Position numbers and translations under genes: made by a program
The notes under the pieces: model-generated
Told to the model about the DNA's origin: nothing
Database searches by the model: none
The model's input: the letters and a program-made list of their open reading frames with translations, nothing else
In this document: piece by piece, positions 1,605 through 9,878 of the stretch
Layout: each line of letters opens with the position of its first letter
Position numbering within the stretch: position 1 is the stretch's first letter
IMG/VR virus record: IMGVR_UViG_3300020438_000355
Coordinates: 1 to 20,553 of that record
Origin: a virus
Length of the DNA stretch: 20,553 nt
Strand: one strand, 5' to 3'

Positions 1605-4330
1605 GCGCTATCCCCAGGCATTCGCTCATGAATAGCTTCGACCGTTGTATTAAAAGAACCTGGTCCAATCTCATGGCTAGATTTCACCACTCGATAATAG
1701 CCTCCTAATTTCAATTGCCGAGCAGCCTCGGTCCCTAAAGCCATATCGGCATTAATATATATTAGACTACCATTGAGAAGAAAATTATTACCCACCATAC
1801 CCAGACTACAATCTTGAGGCAGCACTAAGATCCCTGCCTTGTTGACAGGGGTGTTACTCTCGATGTTCATAGCTCTTATCTGGGGCATCTGTTTTTCACT
1901 GAAGGAAAACTTCTTTGCAAGACCGTTATCTGCCCCAACAAAGAAATGGTATATTCCTCTCGCTTCATCGTCATCCCTGTATCCATTTAACTCAGCGCCT
2001 TGTTCCGCAAAAATTAACATATAATTTGTTGTGCGCCTTGGAGCGGTTGGCATCTCTGGTTGCGTATAGGCATCTTGTATAGCCTTTATGCCCCTCTCAG
2101 TTAAAAAGTTTTTTCCCACAGAGCCCTGAGATTTTCCGGAAACGCTCGCTAACCAGCCCGTATCTAGGCGCAACGGAAGAGTAGTATAGCCAAAGTTTAT
2201 TTTCTCTCGTGGCTTTAAGTCTCCAAAATTCATCATAGGAGAAACAAGCTCATTAAGCAAGGAGTCCAAATACCTTCTAAATGACCATGAATCTCTCTCT
2301 ATTGAGACAACACTTTCAAAAAACCACTGCGAAAAAGTTGTTAGTGCGATTGGCAGATCCGCAATCGGAATAGGAGTAGACCCCTTAAAATGCTTGTATC
2401 CAAGTAGAGCCGGATGATAACTTCCCATGATTACTGCCGCTTCAGAGCCGGCACGGATCGGCGCATTGGCTAAAGCAACCGATATAAGATCCCCTAACCT
2501 CATGTAATACCCTGTATAACTGCGGTTGACATCTGTTGAGGAAGCTTCTTGGGCATTTTCTCGCTCATGAAGTGGGTCTAGAATATGTTTCTCTTCCAAG
2601 TAGGAGTTGAGATCTTTGCTGCCCCGCAAGGTATCAGCTTGAGCGAGCCCTATTAATTTTTCCTCAACTTGTGACAGGTGCCACTTACTAGCTGACCCTA
2701 TACGTGAACCTCTTTTAATCTTCACGGCACGCAAGTTATCAGCAGTCCCCCCAAATTCTCGGGACCCCCTAACAGCGCCTATCGTGGTCTGAACACAGAA
2801 AAGAATCTCGCTTTCTATAATGCGCTTCATGAACGAGGTGTATTTTTTCTCTCGCACGAGTCTCTTCGCCACCTCTAGGTACAAATTAGCTTCACCCAAG
2901 CTTTTGTTAAGTTTCTTTGTTTTCTTGTCTGCCGCTGTTTCAGATGGGGATGCCTTGGCTTTTGATTTAGCTTTCTTTTTGGGCTTCAACGATTCATAGT
3001 ACTCTATTTCTTCTTCAATTAGAGCTATCTCTGCCTCAATTCCCTCAATACTGCCCAAGAAAGCTCTTGAATATCCCACTGGCGGTGTAGCGCCGGATGA
3101 ATATTCCGTTCCCGCCACGGCGTCGGTTGCTGCTGCCAGAGTGTCCACGTAAGCATCAGCAACTCTGCCAGCGCCCTGGGCAGCACGAGACCAGGTAACA
3201 CCCTCAACGTCATACGTCATCTCTCTTGGGTTAATAGTTCTGTATCCCTTTGTGCGGTCGGTAGCGATGCGGTTCAGGATGTATCCGTCTGAATATAAAT
3301 CGTCATCAGTGTCCTCAAACCACGGGAGTAAGAGCGCCTGTTCCCTGATGGGAGGCTTTATTGTTTCGGCAGCCAATACATCTGTGTGGTTAGAGAGCAT
3401 TTGTGCATCGAAACTGCCCACATATTCTATGTTTAAAGTTACTGTACCATTCTCTCCAAAATTAATATCATATTTGCTCAGGTTTAATAATATAACCCGT
3501 TGAGTTGACTTGACGCCATTCATGAAGCTTTCTGACAGCATTTTAAGATCTGTATTTTCAGGAATTGCCCAGCCACATTTAACTTTTAATATCTTGAAAC
3601 TCTTAGAAGCTGAGTCTGTTCCAAATGATGGCGGCTCTTTGCCCTGCTTTAAAAATTTCTTACGCTCATCAACCCGTTTTTTTAGCCACGTTTGGCGGTC
3701 TGTTGGGTCATCTGGTTTGGGGTTCAAACTAGATGGCTTTGGATCTATTTCAGTCTTAATAAAATCCAAATAGGTATTGTTTAAAAGCTCTATCATAGAT
3801 CCAAAATACAAACTTAAGTTAGCTTTGATGATTCTATCACCCTGGTGTTTGTTCTCAAAATTCCAACTAAATGACTTTACCCCCACGTTAGTGCCCATTT
3901 TATCAGTAGCACTAGTAATATCAGACAACTTGCCCTGAGATCTAAGCGTGGCAAACTCAACCATTTTCTGAGATGATACATAATCACTAAACAGAATTGG
4001 CTGATTTTCAAAAAACGTGTTACCAAGACCATCTTTGTGTCCAATAAAAAATTCCAACTTTGGAACCAGAAGGGACAACTGGTCGGAGTTAGCTCGGATA
4101 AAGTCTATCGTATCGGCTGAGTTAACTATTTTATTGGGAATATCATTGGCTGGTCCTAAATAATGATAAATGTCTCTAGGTGGAAAATTAAGTTTGCCGC
4201 CGCAAGGAAAAAGCTGACTCGTATTAGGCTGAAGAATATACTGGTTTAACAAAAGGAGCTTTTGAATATTCTCCCTTTTAAGCTGCTGCGCTTCTGTTTC
4301 TGTAATAGTATCTGGTTTTGCCGAGGACAT
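1601..4330 (-). CDS. Large baseplate/tail hub protein (probable)
   Basis: A 909-residue protein encoded one base after the LysM-type gene (TAA-G-ATG) and overlapping the next gene by four bases. The C-terminus (about 865-909) has a pattern typical of phage tail hub proteins, with GSLIYINADMALGTEA, then LKLGGYYRVVKSSHEIGPG, then a final strand VEAIHERM. Such a 'gyyRV...H.i..g.f.T.l.a.' ending is common in gp27/gpD-like central hubs. The N-terminal half has segments VKSFSWNFENKHQGDR plus IKANLSLYFGSM (about 150-175) and VTLNIEYVGSFDAQML (about 300), which look like beta-barrel or tube-like domains. Between about 425 and 500 lies a charged helical stretch with a lysine/alanine-rich linker (PKKKAKSKAKASPSE). 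I infer it is the central baseplate hub that connects tube and spike. It could also combine hub and wedge roles. No lysozyme motif was seen. Confidence 0.72.
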   Translation of the reverse strand: MSSAKPDTITETEAQQLKRENIQKLLLLNQYILQPNTSQLFPCGGKLNFPPRDIYHYLGPANDIPNKIVNSADTIDFIRANSDQLSLLVPKLEFFIGHKDGLGNTFFENQPILFSDYVSSQKMVEFATLRSQGKLSDITSATDKMGTNVGVKSFSWNFENKHQGDRIIKANLSLYFGSMIELLNNTYLDFIKTEIDPKPSSLNPKPDDPTDRQTWLKKRVDERKKFLKQGKEPPSFGTDSASKSFKILKVKCGWAIPENTDLKMLSESFMNGVKSTQRVILLNLSKYDINFGENGTVTLNIEYVGSFDAQMLSNHTDVLAAETIKPPIREQALLLPWFEDTDDDLYSDGYILNRIATDRTKGYRTINPREMTYDVEGVTWSRAAQGAGRVADAYVDTLAAATDAVAGTEYSSGATPPVGYSRAFLGSIEGIEAEIALIEEEIEYYESLKPKKKAKSKAKASPSETAADKKTKKLNKSLGEANLYLEVAKRLVREKKYTSFMKRIIESEILFCVQTTIGAVRGSREFGGTADNLRAVKIKRGSRIGSASKWHLSQVEEKLIGLAQADTLRGSKDLNSYLEEKHILDPLHERENAQEASSTDVNRSYTGYYMRLGDLISVALANAPIRAGSEAAVIMGSYHPALLGYKHFKGSTPIPIADLPIALTTFSQWFFESVVSIERDSWSFRRYLDSLLNELVSPMMNFGDLKPREKINFGYTTLPLRLDTGWLASVSGKSQGSVGKNFLTERGIKAIQDAYTQPEMPTAPRRTTNYMLIFAEQGAELNGYRDDDEARGIYHFFVGADNGLAKKFSFSEKQMPQIRAMNIESNTPVNKAGILVLPQDCSLGMVGNNFLLNGSLIYINADMALGTEAARQLKLGGYYRVVKSSHEIGPGSFNTTVEAIHERMPGDSA

Positions 4331-5556: not shown

Positions 5557-7836
5557 CTATGTTATGTTCAGCGGGTTAGTGTATTCTTCATATACGTCCA
5601 TTACAGCTTCACCAAACACTCTATCATTTACTATTAACTGAATTGGTTGGCGTCTTGTTTGGGCTGAGGATCTTGACTGTCCAGCACTCGCAGTGGCGTT
5701 GGCTGCCTCACGCATAGCCAAGCTGTCCGCTGCCTGAGAGGCGTTGAAGGTGGCCTGAACCTGTCCCATCACTGCTTTCATATTTTCTAGGTCCCCCGTA
5801 CTTACTGTTGTTGAAACAGAAACAATACGCTCTAAACTTGCCATCGATCCAGTATCCGCATCAAATTTACCAAAAGCTTCCGCCAAGGATCCTAACTCTA
5901 CAACGAAAGACCGGAGACCATTTATAACCTCCGAGCTTCCTAAGCGAGCCATGGCGTTAGCTATGATATCCAAAGAGCCCGCTATTCCGCTGCCCCTGTT
6001 TCCTAATGCTGAGGATATTACATGAAGGGCTCCCCCTAAAGCCACTAAAGCTGCCGATAGACTCAACAAAGCCACAATACCAGCAGCAAAAACAATTGCC
6101 CCAATACCGGTATACATGACTGCCCCCAGTGCTAGTATAGCTAGACTCAAAATACCAATGGCACCGGCGGCGGTTGCCAACTCATCTAAACCAACATCTG
6201 TAAACGCCCTCAAAGATAATCCTAAAAGCCCAAGCGACGCTGCCAAGCCGACGAGTGCCAAGGCACCTTTAGCAATTTGTGCTGGGGAAATAGTCGTCAT
6301 GAAAGCAAAAAATCGCTGGAGGGCAGCGCCCAAGTTTGTTAGGAAAGCCGGCATTGTTGGAGCAACAAAGCCCAGCATAGTAAACAAGGACCCCAACATT
6401 GGACCAACAATAGGTAGTGTGGTGGCTAGAGTGGCCACTATAGTCAGAATCCCTTTCATGGCTGCGACGAACAAAAGTACTTGAGCAATGCCACTGTCAG
6501 CAAGGAACTGGACAAACCCCATTATTATTTCAACCACTGGTGCTATTTTTAAGAAAAGGTCCTGCATAGCGACTTTGAATTTATCCATAGCTGTTGTCAT
6601 GGCTTCTGCTCGCTCTTTCAGTTCTTTCTGTTCTTTGTTATATTTCCGCAATTCTACGGGGTCGCCAAACAAACGGCTAGCCAAATCTACATCAACACCC
6701 AAGACCTCGGCAATGGCTTGCTTCTGTCTTCGATCCATATCTTTAAAGTTTTTGCCTCGTAAATCAAATTCTTGTCGTAGAATCTTAATTCTATCTTCAT
6801 GACTGGCTGTCATTAGTTCAACTGAATTTAACTGAAGCCCAATTTGGGCATTTAGTTTTCCGGCAAGGTCAGCAGCACCCTGAAAAGTATCAAAGGCTTC
6901 CGCAATGTTAAAAGCCTCCTGAAGGTCCATCCCCAATGCTCTGGCCTCTTTGGAGAGTTCTTTGAATACTTTTACGCCCTCAGCACCATAGCGAGCAAGT
7001 TGTGGTTGCAGCGTGCTGAAGTCCTTAACCATCTGGCTAGTGGGGAGACCTATCTGTTGACCGAGTTGGTCAAAATCTATAGCAACCCTTTCAGCAGCGG
7101 TCACTGTCATATTCATCCCACGGGTCAGACCATCAAAAAGTACGCCGGTTTCCTCAGCACTAACTCCCATCTTAGACAATGACGCTGCCGTATCTCGTAA
7201 AGATTTACGAGTATTGTCACTAACCGTGGCGAACAAGGTCATATTAGTTGTAAGTCCGCCAATAATTTCAGACCCCTCTGCCAGAGTAAGTCCTAAAGTA
7301 TTGTTCGCTGCCGTAACATCTATTATATCAGCAGCAAAAGCCTGAGTGTATCCAGTAGATTTTGCGAGAGCAACGTTGGCAGCATCAAGCTGATGTGCCA
7401 TCTTGATAAGCTCTATTGTTAGACCTTTTGCTGTAGCAAGCTGATCGAGTTGAATCCCAAGTAACTCGGATGAAATATCTCGAATTGTTCCACGAAGTTC
7501 TGCTTCTTCAGCAATTTGCTCTCGTAAATCTAGCTGAACTCGGTAACGTTCCTGCGTGATATCCAGTTGTTGCTGGCTTAAACCGACCTCTTCATTGAGT
7601 GCAGCAACATTGCCTTCTAGTGCTTGTTTCTGTTCTTCCAGAAGTTGCTTATTTTGCCCGGTGGCGGTACCTATCTCTTGTTCAAGTTTTGCTATTTCTC
7701 GCTGGCTCGTGAGAATCTTAGCCTTCTTCTTATCGTTTTCGTCAGTTAAGTCTAGGAGATCCCGCTCCAACTCAATGCGGCGTTCTAATATTTTTAATTC
7801 TTCTTCAGCAGCAGTTAAGTTGCGTTCATCAACCAT
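5557..7836 (-). CDS. Tail tape measure protein
   Basis: A 759-residue protein that sets tail length and is packed inside the tube. Residues 1-120 are a long charged coiled coil. Then comes an alpha-helical region with features of tape measure proteins (LDAANVALAKSTGYTQAF near 155, TNMTLFATVSDNTRKSLRD near 200, and LSKMGVSAEETGVLFDGLT near 220). The segments at about 445-480, 520-541 and 552-605 are long, very hydrophobic, Gly/Ala/Leu-rich stretches of the kind that insert into the host membrane during DNA entry. At the usual about 1.5 angstrom per residue, 759 residues would fit a tail of very roughly 110 nm (inference only). The start ATG follows TGAGGTAACATCCG. It lies 11 bases after the stop of the 111-aa gene, downstream of the gp26-like/frameshift pair, the classical order tube, chaperone, tape measure. 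Confidence 0.9.
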   Translation of the reverse strand: MVDERNLTAAEEELKILERRIELERDLLDLTDENDKKKAKILTSQREIAKLEQEIGTATGQNKQLLEEQKQALEGNVAALNEEVGLSQQQLDITQERYRVQLDLREQIAEEAELRGTIRDISSELLGIQLDQLATAKGLTIELIKMAHQLDAANVALAKSTGYTQAFAADIIDVTAANNTLGLTLAEGSEIIGGLTTNMTLFATVSDNTRKSLRDTAASLSKMGVSAEETGVLFDGLTRGMNMTVTAAERVAIDFDQLGQQIGLPTSQMVKDFSTLQPQLARYGAEGVKVFKELSKEARALGMDLQEAFNIAEAFDTFQGAADLAGKLNAQIGLQLNSVELMTASHEDRIKILRQEFDLRGKNFKDMDRRQKQAIAEVLGVDVDLASRLFGDPVELRKYNKEQKELKERAEAMTTAMDKFKVAMQDLFLKIAPVVEIIMGFVQFLADSGIAQVLLFVAAMKGILTIVATLATTLPIVGPMLGSLFTMLGFVAPTMPAFLTNLGAALQRFFAFMTTISPAQIAKGALALVGLAASLGLLGLSLRAFTDVGLDELATAAGAIGILSLAILALGAVMYTGIGAIVFAAGIVALLSLSAALVALGGALHVISSALGNRGSGIAGSLDIIANAMARLGSSEVINGLRSFVVELGSLAEAFGKFDADTGSMASLERIVSVSTTVSTGDLENMKAVMGQVQATFNASQAADSLAMREAANATASAGQSRSSAQTRRQPIQLIVNDRVFGEAVMDVYEEYTNPLNIT

Positions 7837-7847
7837 CGGATGTTACC

Positions 7848-8183
7848 TCAGTTCCGAATAGGCCAAGCTATTCCAGCTTCCCTTTCGAATCTCTTAATAG
7901 CCACATCAAGCTTGGCTTTCTGGGAGTATGTCATCGGATTATCAAGACCGTACTTTTTAATATAATTCATATATCTTTTTTCATTAACAAGGGCATCAGT
8001 GAATCTTTCCACTTCTATTTTGTTCCCTCGAACACGAACAGGGATCCGCCTTCCCTTGTACATCTTTGAAAGCAAGTATTGTATCCACGCCGCAAAGACG
8101 TGGAGAATGTTTTCGTTGAGTTCACCCTTACGAGCAGCACCCAAATCGAATACTATTTCTTCTAATTGTTCTTCGTTAAGCAT
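7848..8183 (-). CDS. Small protein between chaperone and tape measure
   Basis: A 111-residue, helix-rich basic protein that I cannot assign. Visible segments are LEEIVFDLGAARKGELNEN, VFAAWIQYLLSKMY, RIPVRVRGNKIEVERFTDA and EKRYMNYIKKYGL, ending in FEREAGIAWPIRN. It has no membrane segment and no cysteines. The ATG follows AAGGA at six bases, just after a small hairpin (8195-8213). It is encoded immediately upstream of the tape measure gene. Proteins in this slot often help the tape measure fold or join the tail to the baseplate, so a tail-assembly accessory role is reasonable but is only inferred from position. Confidence 0.85.
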   Translation of the reverse strand: MLNEEQLEEIVFDLGAARKGELNENILHVFAAWIQYLLSKMYKGRRIPVRVRGNKIEVERFTDALVNEKRYMNYIKKYGLDNPMTYSQKAKLDVAIKRFEREAGIAWPIRN

Positions 8184-8247: not shown

Positions 8248-8448
8248 CTACCGTCGCCGAGATTTAGCTTTAGACATAGCTTTCTCATGTTGGTCGGCTT
8301 CATCCTTTTTCTGCTTTGCTAAACGACGCAAAAACCAACGTCTTAACACCACTGGGAGATTGTACGCTTCAAAGAAGCTCCAACCACCATAATACTTTAA
8401 TTGAAAAAACTCTTCGTATACACTTTCAGAGTATGCCTCATTTAGGCC
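8248..8448 (-). CDS. Frameshift-accessed extension of the gp26-like gene (putative tail assembly chaperone)
   Basis: A frame in +1 register to the upstream gene encodes 66 residues from GGC at 8448 to TAG at 8248. It includes VYEEFFQLKYYGGWSFFEAY and NLPVVLRRWFLRRLAKQKK, then a charged lysine/arginine tail. It looks like real coding sequence and fills an otherwise empty gap. It has no usable start: the frame is closed upstream by TGA at 8466-8464 and contains no ATG, GTG or TTG before two GTG codons in the middle of the conserved-looking core, which have no ribosome binding site. It joins the upstream gene at TTT TTT T (8455-8449), where a +1 slip re-pairs perfectly with TTT. The fused product would be 286 + 66 = 352 residues. 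Position between tail tube and tape measure matches the lambda G/GT chaperone. A homopolymer sequencing error would produce the same picture. It may also be annotated elsewhere as a gp51-like small gene. Confidence 0.72.
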   Translation of the reverse strand, partial: GLNEAYSESVYEEFFQLKYYGGWSFFEAYNLPVVLRRWFLRRLAKQKKDEADQHEKAMSKAKSRRR

Positions 8449-9307
8449 AAAAAAAGTCGATGGTCAGCGGAACCTCCATGTCCGCAGAGTACCCGCATGA
8501 ACTGCACTCGAATGTTTGTGTAAGGTCAATATTAGGAGAAGCCGCCGCATAGAAGGTTCTCAAGAAGCGTGAGTCTCGGGCTGGCATTGCGTTAACAAAA
8601 CTAGCGACAGTCATTACGTCGTCAGAACCGTTAACCGAAACAATGAACGCTCTAAACTGGTCTGTAAGTGTTGAGTCATTAAGCTTTTTCTTAGCGTTAC
8701 GCTGTGCCTTCTTGAACAGCATCATCTCATCCTCTCCAGTAAGAAGCCGAACCTCGACCTGAGCCTTTGTCATAGGAGTTTCGAGCAAGAAGGTATTACG
8801 GTCAGTTAGCGTTGCATTATAATCTTCTAGCGCACTTGAGGGATCCGAAACTATCCCATCGTCTAAATCAAAAGCATATTCGTTTTGCTCCTGACAAGAG
8901 GGACAAGTTACTTTGGTCTCGTAAATGTTGCCATACCCAGTTACTCGGGCGGCAATGATTAAAGCATTCTTATCACCAACCAAAAGAGAGTTGATATTAA
9001 TGCTCTTATCGACTATTAGATTCTCCAAAACTCGATCGATAGCTACTCCGGCTTTGACAAGCGACCTTGAAGTCAAAATGTCTTCTTCTTTGGCAGTCAT
9101 ATACTTAATTTCTATATTACTGCTATTATGGAGTGGGTGACCCGGAGGGTAAAACTTTCCTGCGCTTGGCAGGTTAATCATTTCTGTGGGGGTTGCCCAA
9201 GAGAAACCACCCCCAGTCTGTGCTGTGATAGCAGCAGCGGGGGGGTTCTCATCCATTTCTAGAATTTCTTCGCCCTCTAAGCCAAGGCGATCTTTATTTC
9301 TACTCAT
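8438..9307 (-). CDS. 26: gp26-like baseplate/tail assembly protein with zinc ribbon
   Basis: A 289-residue protein of the T4 baseplate protein family (T4 gp26-like). The family pattern is seen in MTAKEEDILTSRSLVKAGVA near 70-89, VLENLIVDKSININSLLVGD near 93-112 and NALIIAARVTGYG near 114-126. It then has two CxxC pairs, C135/C138 and C268/C271, which probably bind one zinc. The N-terminal about 45 residues are acidic and proline/glycine-rich. The ATG is preceded by AAAGG, 29 bases after the tube gene stop. The end reads IDFFWPK, with codons TTT TTT TGG CCT AAA TGA, and the run of seven T is a potential +1 slip site into the next frame. By position (after the tube, before the tape measure) it may work as a tail assembly chaperone rather than a permanent baseplate part. 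Both readings are compatible with the family. Confidence 0.82.
   Translation of the reverse strand: MSRNKDRLGLEGEEILEMDENPPAAAITAQTGGGFSWATPTEMINLPSAGKFYPPGHPLHNSSNIEIKYMTAKEEDILTSRSLVKAGVAIDRVLENLIVDKSININSLLVGDKNALIIAARVTGYGNIYETKVTCPSCQEQNEYAFDLDDGIVSDPSSALEDYNATLTDRNTFLLETPMTKAQVEVRLLTGEDEMMLFKKAQRNAKKKLNDSTLTDQFRAFIVSVNGSDDVMTVASFVNAMPARDSRFLRTFYAAASPNIDLTQTFECSSCGYSADMEVPLTIDFFWPK
8449..8455 (-). promoter_or_regulatory. Putative +1 ribosomal frameshift site (seven T)
   Basis: On the coding strand the zero frame reads GAC TTT TTT TGG CCT AAA TGA. A peptidyl-tRNA on the second TTT can move one base forward and pair perfectly with TTT again, entering the frame GGC CTA AAT GAG that encodes the 66-residue extension. 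A stop follows only three codons later in zero frame. A GGAGG lies 17 bases upstream, farther than in known stimulatory cases. I see no clear downstream pseudoknot. Without reads or homologues, a one-base homopolymer error remains possible. Confidence 0.6.
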
Positions 9308-9338: not shown

Positions 9339-9878
9339 TTATCCTACGGAACCCTGAGAGTACCTAACGCCGTTGCCAGCTTTGGAAAGTACGGCATAGT
9401 CGTACACGATCTCCATTGTAATCTCATTCATATCGTCAGATGAATAATCAAGGGCTCCGCCAAAGTCAATACTTGATACCCAGGGATTGGTCAGTGTCCA
9501 TGTTTCAACAATCCCTCCTTCGCCATTGATCTGTGAAATGCTGACCCCGATGAGACCCTGTTGAACCGAGGCTTTCTTGCTAATAGTGCCCCGCTTGTTT
9601 TCATCTGTTGGGTACTGATACCCGGAGGCTACAATGCGATCGAGCATCGTCTTTGCCATGTCAGGATCTAAAGGGTCAACCAGAGTTACGCTAATCGGAT
9701 CCCAACTAGCACGTCCCGGATACTTAAATGTATGATTCAGAAACGTATGTTCAACAGTGTTGATATTAACCTTTGGTTTGTTTGTTGTTTTGATAACCCA
9801 AACTGGAATATTCCCAATATTGAGAATAAATCGATATCTGCGCTTTGGATCGAGGTCCGAGTTGTTCCAGAACTTCAT
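9339..9878 (-). CDS. 19: Tail tube protein (gp19-like)
   Basis: A 179-residue protein close in length to T4 gp19 (163 aa), the subunit that polymerises into the inner tail tube. It has the expected layout: an N-terminal strand with RRYRFILNIGNIPVWVIKT, then KPKVNINTVEHTFLNHTFKY, WDPISVTLVDPLDPDMAK, a loop region, and a C-terminal block with ETWTLTNPWVSSIDFGGAL followed by MNEITMEIVYDYAVL. The 'W.l.n.wv.s..fg.ldys.d...ei.m.i.yDya' ending is characteristic of contractile tail tube proteins. It lies directly after the sheath gene, 45 bases apart, with a good AGGAGC ribosome binding site nine bases before the ATG. Confidence 0.9.
   Translation of the reverse strand: MKFWNNSDLDPKRRYRFILNIGNIPVWVIKTTNKPKVNINTVEHTFLNHTFKYPGRASWDPISVTLVDPLDPDMAKTMLDRIVASGYQYPTDENKRGTISKKASVQQGLIGVSISQINGEGGIVETWTLTNPWVSSIDFGGALDYSSDDMNEITMEIVYDYAVLSKAGNGVRYSQGSVG

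What the first reader, a model, noticed from the sequence alone, without database searches (positions are those of the whole stretch)
8248..8466. Probable programmed +1 frameshift making a tail assembly chaperone fusion
Seen: the gp26-like gene ends TTT TTT TGG CCT AAA TGA. The +1 frame right after the T run is open for 66 codons, encodes a plausible conserved-looking module (YYGGWSFFEAYNLPVVLRRW), and has an upstream stop (TGA, 8466-8464) but no start codon before its core. A +1 slip on TTT-T re-pairs perfectly. Known: many tailed phages make a chaperone pair (lambda G and GT) by frameshifting, encoded between tail tube and tape measure, exactly the slot here. Inference: the gp26-like protein and its 352-residue fused form act as the chaperone pair for the 759-residue tape measure. 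If so, it extends the G/GT logic to a T4-like gp26 family protein with a different slip type. The rival explanation is a one-base homopolymer error.
Basis: partly seen in the sequence, partly recalled or inferred. Interest (0 to 1): 0.8.

Follow-up and report, generated by a model that had tools for sequence, protein, structure and literature searches.

The report
Ribosome-slip tail chaperone in marine phages
A virus related to phage T4 makes a short and a long form of a tail-building helper protein from one gene by having some ribosomes slip forward one base on a run of Ts; the slip site is kept in over a hundred related, mostly marine, viruses and has so far gone unannotated.

Summary
It is not a sequencing error. 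The gp26-like gene (9307-8438, minus strand; Pfam PF12322) is followed in the +1 frame by a 66-codon module that has no start codon. 164 of 165 related loci carry the module in the +1 frame. The junction TTT TTT TGG CCT is nearly invariant: 124 of 139 non-identical loci match TTT TTT TGG exactly, and the other 15 keep a TTT-Y or CTT-T re-pairing site. Purifying selection passes from frame 0 to +1 at this point, and all 136 anchored loci read Gly-Leu in +1 straight after the T run. Programmed +1 frameshifting giving short and long tail assembly chaperones is therefore well supported by comparison; it has not been shown biochemically.

The novelty claim needs cutting. gp26 and gp51 of T4-like phages were identified as the chaperone pair in 2022 (Vladimirov et al.). 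T4 encodes them as two paralogous genes; cyanophages and KVP40-like phages carry a -1 slippery T TTT TTC at the same place. Apparently new are the +1 version at that poly-T position, its sense-codon (TGG or CTA) A site, and an upstream GGAGG element kept in 123 of 136 loci. I rate it a new variant of a known kind.

The parts
8438..9307 (-). gp26-like gene, short form (TAC-N), 289 aa, zinc-finger-type protein of the T4_baseplate family
   Evidence: Pfam PF12322 5e-15; phrog_150 2.1e-17; AlphaFold2 model pLDDT 87.7 with BFVD matches to T4-like gp26 proteins, e.g. SP-15 E 2e-17
8449..8455 (-). seven-T slip site: P-site TTT slips +1 to TTT, A-site TGG replaced by GGC
   Evidence: conserved in 124 of 139 non-identical loci, the rest keep TTT-Y or CTT-T; same T7 in 14 of 15 more distant relatives
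8251..8448 (-). +1-frame C-terminal module, 66 codons, no start codon; long form is 352 aa
   Evidence: purifying selection in +1 frame; helical model pLDDT 86; weakly DUF6760-like
8438..8440 (-). frame-0 TGA stop of the short form, 3 codons (TGG CCT AAA) after the slip codons
   Evidence: 3-4 frame-0 codons (counting TGG) after the slip in 134 of 136 loci
8464..8466 (-). in-frame TGA closing the +1 frame upstream, so the module cannot start further upstream
8473..8477 (-). GGAGG, anti-SD-complementary element 17 nt upstream of the T run; candidate stimulator
   Evidence: GGAGG found upstream in 123 of 136 loci, mostly at -28 or -34, expected 0.023 per 45 nt; GAG 105 to GAA 5 at that codon against 949 to 1389 elsewhere
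9339..9878 (-). tail tube gene (context)
   Evidence: phrog_4542 7.9e-22
5557..7836 (-). tape measure candidate, 759 aa (context; the presumed chaperone client)
   Evidence: position; the corresponding gene of Flavobacterium phage immuto is annotated as tape measure; profile match weak, phrog_167 E 0.51

Best explanation
The locus encodes a tail assembly chaperone pair. Most ribosomes read the gp26-like gene to its TGA and make the 289-residue short form. A minority slip forward one base when peptidyl-tRNA-Phe sits on TTT with a slow sense codon (TGG) in the A site. They then continue in the +1 frame and add a 66-residue helical module, making a 352-residue long form. By analogy with lambda G/GT and T4 gp26/gp51, many short and few long forms coat the tape measure protein, and the module recruits tail tube subunits; both then leave. 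Shown by comparison: the frame, the place of the shift, the absence of a start codon, and selection on the module. Inferred: the tRNA slip mechanism, the ratio of forms, and the function of each form.
For: The start-less +1 ORF is confirmed. The +1 frame is kept in 164 of 165 loci and in the 15 more distant loci from bacterial assemblies, 34-51% identical. TTT TTT TGG occurs in 124 of 139 loci and every variant allows re-pairing. Coding constraint hands over at the T run. All 136 loci give Gly-Leu in +1, and all 11 deviations from CCT are silent in +1 but change the residue in frame 0. Third-position changes at the slip codons are 2 and 2, against a median of 41. gp26 family membership rests. 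T4 gp26 and gp51 are paralogues differing by this module. The top PDB fold match of the short form is the HK97 tail assembly chaperone 2ob9, below significance at E 1.0. The module's BFVD matches include gp51 of P-HM1 and annotated tape-measure/tail chaperones, also sub-significant.
Against: There are no protein or ribosome data. No strong RNA structure lies downstream (mean z -0.2 to -0.8). The GGAGG spacing of 17-23 nt is longer than in known stimulators and it is missing in 13 loci. The tape measure gene is identified mainly by position. Many relatives, unlike the window, contain ATG/GTG/TTG codons somewhere in the overlapping part of the +1 frame, so only 25-26 loci (the window included) strictly exclude independent initiation.
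Confidence: 0.87

Rival explanations
1. Sequencing or assembly error: one T too many or too few splits a single ordinary gene.
Against: Same frame relation in 164 of 165 independently assembled loci. Variants without a long T run (TTT CTT TGG, TTT CTA TGG) have the same +1 relation. Isolate genomes Mel-JY01 and Flavobacterium immuto show it too.
Confidence: 0.01
2. The module is a separate small protein made by independent initiation or translational coupling, like annotated gp51 of cyanophages or DUF6760 of contractile injection systems.
For: Mel-JY01 annotates it as an ORF from an upstream TTG; some -1 relatives (Moby, R10Z) have an ATG overlapping the gp26 stop; injection-system-type loci have NTGA overlaps with an SD-like GGGGGA.
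Against: 25-26 loci, the window among them, have no ATG/GTG/TTG before the core, and the window has no CTG/ATT/ATC/ATA either. The +1 frame is under selection from Gly-Leu right after the T run. T4 gp51 carries the module fused to a full gp26 domain.
Confidence: 0.04
3. Transcriptional slippage on the seven-T run, rather than ribosomal slippage, makes the +1 message.
For: T7 runs can slip; the run is nearly invariant.
Against: TTT CTT TGG (8 loci) and TTT CTA TGG (2 loci) break the run yet keep the +1 relation and codon re-pairing.
Confidence: 0.05
4. A -2 rather than +1 slip reaches the same frame, as in phage Mu.
For: Seven Ts allow P-site re-pairing after -2; -2 is known in Mu (PMC5009743).
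Against: In the TTT CTT TGG and TTT CTA TGG/TTC variants a -2 step cannot re-pair, while +1 can (reasoning from codons).
Confidence: 0.03

Closest known systems
T4 gp26 / gp51 and T4-like tail assembly chaperones (Vladimirov, Gautam and Davidson 2022, doi 10.1016/j.virol.2021.11.003; seen only as cited in PMC12846349 and PMC10885494)
   Same: Same PF12322 family, same short/long logic, same C-terminal module; T4 gp26 ends at FFELL where the slip would be.
   Different: T4 uses two paralogous genes on opposite strands and relatives use a -1 heptamer T TTT TTC (68 of 68 cyanophage-type loci); the window uses +1.
Phage lambda G / GT tail assembly chaperones
   Same: [quoted passage not shown] gene lies between tail tube and tape measure.
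   Different: -1 shift at another slippery sequence; no sequence relation found here.
Vandenendeviridae / Andersonviridae tail chaperone with GTTTTT slip (PMC12846349)
   Same: Poly-T slip site in a contractile-tail phage, module previously called a hypothetical protein.
   Different: -1 shift; described as a separate chaperone locus, and kinship to PF12322 was not tested here.
Bacterial prfB (RF2) +1 frameshift, CTT TGA with an upstream SD-like element
   Same: +1 slip with a CTT-T or TTT-T P-site re-pairing and an anti-SD-complementary element upstream.
   Different: RF2 has a stop codon in the A site and the SD-like element about 3 nt away (own knowledge); here a sense codon and 17-23 nt.
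DUF6760 (PF20546) of contractile injection systems
   Same: Weakly related module following a zinc-motif protein.
   Different: There the junction looks like an NTGA start-stop overlap, not a poly-T slip.

Membership tests
PF12322 / gp26-type tail assembly chaperone | Significant match to the family profile over its length | tested here: met
   PF12322 56.2 bits against cut-off 24.5, profile 14-219 of 219
PF12322 / gp26-type tail assembly chaperone | Lies between tail tube and tape measure | tested here: met
   tail tube phrog_4542 directly upstream; tape measure by position and by annotation in the relative immuto
Frameshifting tail assembly chaperone pair (G/GT kind) | Out-of-frame C-terminal extension without own start, conserved across relatives | tested here: met
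Frameshifting tail assembly chaperone pair (G/GT kind) | Slippery sequence allowing tRNA re-pairing at the frame junction | tested here: met
Frameshifting tail assembly chaperone pair (G/GT kind) | Both products made; bind tape measure and tail tube; absent from virion | not testable with these tools
   needs protein experiments
-1 T TTT TTN class of T4-like chaperones | Module in the -1 frame | tested here: not met
   module is +1 in the window and its clade; -1 only in T4-like/cyanophage and jumbo clades
RF2-type +1 frameshift | Stop codon in the A site at the slip | tested here: not met
   A-site codon is TGG (or CTA), stop lies 3-4 codons downstream
HK97-type tail assembly chaperone fold | Significant structural match to 2ob9 | tested here: inconclusive
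   rank 1 but E 1.0, probability 0.30, TM 0.46 by target length
DUF6760 | Score above the Pfam cut-off | tested here: not met
   window module 14.7 bits against cut-off 27; 21 of 35 members match weakly, best 7e-4

The most novel reading that the evidence does not exclude
A distinct class of bacterial-virus +1 frameshift signal: P-site TTT-Y or CTT-T with a sense A-site codon (TGG or CTA) and no stop codon, helped by a GGAGG element 17-23 nt upstream that is kept while its position moves. It sits where relatives use a -1 heptamer, so slip direction was switched in evolution while the short/long chaperone outcome was kept.
Probability: 0.5. Interest if true: 0.65.

Novelty: new variant of a known kind. 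Interest (0 to 1): 0.5.

Why it matters
It corrects the annotation of a tail assembly gene in a large group of environmental, mostly marine, T4-superfamily viruses. It shows that one chaperone family reaches the same two-product outcome in three ways: +1 slip, -1 slip and gene duplication (T4). Slip direction can thus be seen switching at one homologous site, a natural test of what sets the direction of ribosomal frameshifting. The conserved GGAGG element offers a direct test of long-spaced anti-SD stimulation of +1 slipping.

Tried and rejected
Homopolymer error: rejected by conservation and broken-run variants. -2 slip and transcriptional slippage: disfavoured by the CTT and CTA variants. 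Slip further downstream at CCT: rejected because the +1 frame is already under selection at GGC CTN. Downstream RNA stimulator: no clear signal. Direct hhalign of the fused alignment with single T4 gp26 or gp51 sequences gave weak scores; T4 paralogy was shown instead by family profiles and BLASTP 2e-6. PDB sequence search gave nothing useful. DNA-level search of phages and a plasmid search were empty. The 2022 T4-like chaperone paper itself is not held, so whether it mentions +1 cases is unknown.

Full report
1. Observation. On the minus strand the gp26-like gene runs 9307-8438 and ends GAC TTT TTT TGG CCT AAA TGA. The seven Ts lie at 8455-8449. The +1 frame is open from TGA 8466-8464 to TAG 8250-8248. 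The first ATG/GTG/TTG in it is GTG 8352, after the YYGGWSFF core, and CTG, ATT, ATC and ATA are also absent before the core. The fused length is 352 residues.

2. Family and context. The short form matches PF12322 (T4_baseplate, 5e-15) and phrog_150 (2e-17). It follows a tail tube gene (phrog_4542, 8e-22) and precedes a 111-aa gene of unknown function and a 759-aa tape measure candidate. The tape measure call rests on position and on the annotated counterpart in Flavobacterium phage immuto; its own profile match is weak. The contig is a 20,553-base IMG/VR virus record. Its capsid protein is nearest to LR756508, immuto, Mel-JY01, LR756511 and Rhodothermus RM378, so I place it in the far T4 superfamily (inference).

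3. Conservation of the shift. A phage-record search found the module in +1 in LR756508 and in the isolate Microcystis phage Mel-JY01. Two scans of viral contigs gave 160 loci. Of the 165 loci with both gene and module, 164 have the module in +1. Among 139 non-identical loci the slip codons are TTT TTT TGG in 124, TTT CTT TGG in 8, TTC TTT TGG in 2 and TTT CTA TGG in 2, plus three distant forms. Every one permits +1 re-pairing of tRNA-Phe or tRNA-Leu. In 15 more distant loci from bacterial assemblies (34-51% identity), 14 have TTTTTTTGG and the other has TTTTTTTTCC, all with the module in +1.

4. Selection. pN/pS upstream is 0.53 in frame 0 and 1.02 in +1; downstream it is 0.36 in +1 and 2.02 in frame 0. 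On a 136-tip tree the third positions of the two slip codons change 2 and 2 times, against a median of 41 for other conserved codons and 20-35 for other Phe columns. All 136 loci read Gly-Leu in +1 straight after the run; all 11 departures from CCT are silent in +1 and change the residue in frame 0. This places the shift at the T run itself. The CTT and CTA variants argue against -2 slipping, transcriptional slippage and sequencing error.

5. Possible stimulator. GGAGG lies within 45 nt upstream in 123 of 136 loci, at -28 (100 loci) or -34 (20 loci) relative to TGG in most, while 0.023 per 45 nt is expected from the rest of the gene. Its position class changes 16 times on the tree, yet it is kept. 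Codon choice there (GAG 105, GAA 5) differs from the rest of the gene (949 to 1389). The counts are not corrected for relatedness. Its spacing, 17 or 23 nt to the T run, is long for known stimulators, so its role is open. No downstream RNA structure stood out.

6. Related systems. Cyanophage-type loci have T TTT TTC at the end of gp26 in 68 of 68 non-identical cases, with the module in the -1 frame. Aeh1, KVP40-like R10Z, Moby and ACP17 have the same -1 heptamer, as do jumbo phages such as XacN1 and RAS14 with T TTT TTN-type runs. In T4, gp26 and gp51 are separate genes on opposite strands. Both match PF12322 over its length; gp51 alone reaches the C-terminal module of phrog_150, and the two align by BLASTP at 2e-6. 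In a 40-row tree the slip directions cluster: T4-like -1 with the T4 duplicates on one side, and on the other side +1 rows in two groups with a jumbo -1 group between them. Direction therefore changed at least once at a homologous site. The tree is of divergent sequences and has several open forks.

7. Structure. The short form models well (pLDDT 87.7). It matches predicted gp26-type proteins in BFVD, and its first PDB match is the HK97 tail assembly chaperone, but below significance. The module models as helices (pLDDT 86); its sub-significant matches include gp51 of P-HM1 and annotated tape-measure/tail chaperones.

8. What is known. A 2016 review (PMC5009743) says G-T frameshifting is conserved in long-tailed phages except T4, with -1, -2 or +1 used in different phages. 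Vladimirov et al. 2022 then identified the T4-like chaperone genes, and PMC12846349 cites it for poly-T -1 signals in T4-like phages. So the chaperone identity and the -1 form are known. I found no report of the +1 form in this family, but the 2022 paper itself could not be read.

9. Verdict. The frameshift is very likely real and +1; the chaperone function is likely, by homology. It is a new variant of a known kind.

Noticed in passing
L295-L299, L301-L306, L313 (Actinomycetota genomes with DUF6760): Injection-system-type loci carry a zinc-motif protein ending mostly ...GG(R/S)RLGES* followed in -1 by DUF6760, with a conserved junction CCTGGGGGAATC[A/G]TGACG in most that looks like an NTGA start-stop overlap with an SD-like sequence; two loci (L301, L305) have CTGA and no usual start.
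   Followed up: partly
L272 (Aeromonas phage Aeh1) 3180-3380: The -1 chaperone module after gp26 is open and resembles the other modules but is unannotated; the next annotated gene starts at 3384.
   Followed up: partly
L010, L276 (cyanophages Syn1, S-CAM3): Annotated 'gp51' genes start inside the -1 module; they are most likely truncated calls of the frameshift extension, not independent genes.
   Followed up: partly
L004, L006, L008 (SP-15, LIS04, GXN1): The Gram-positive +1 group shares a CCCGATT motif a few codons after the T-rich stretch, so its slip point could be at NCC CGA rather than at TTT-Y.
   Followed up: no
window 7848-8183 (-): 111-aa gene between the module and the tape measure candidate with no Pfam or PHROG match above chance.
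   Followed up: no
cyanophage-type loci, e.g. L185-L255, about +32 from the first T of the heptamer: A second strongly anti-SD-complementary stretch (CTGGAGGG, coding L-E-G) lies inside the -1 module; purpose unknown.
   Followed up: no
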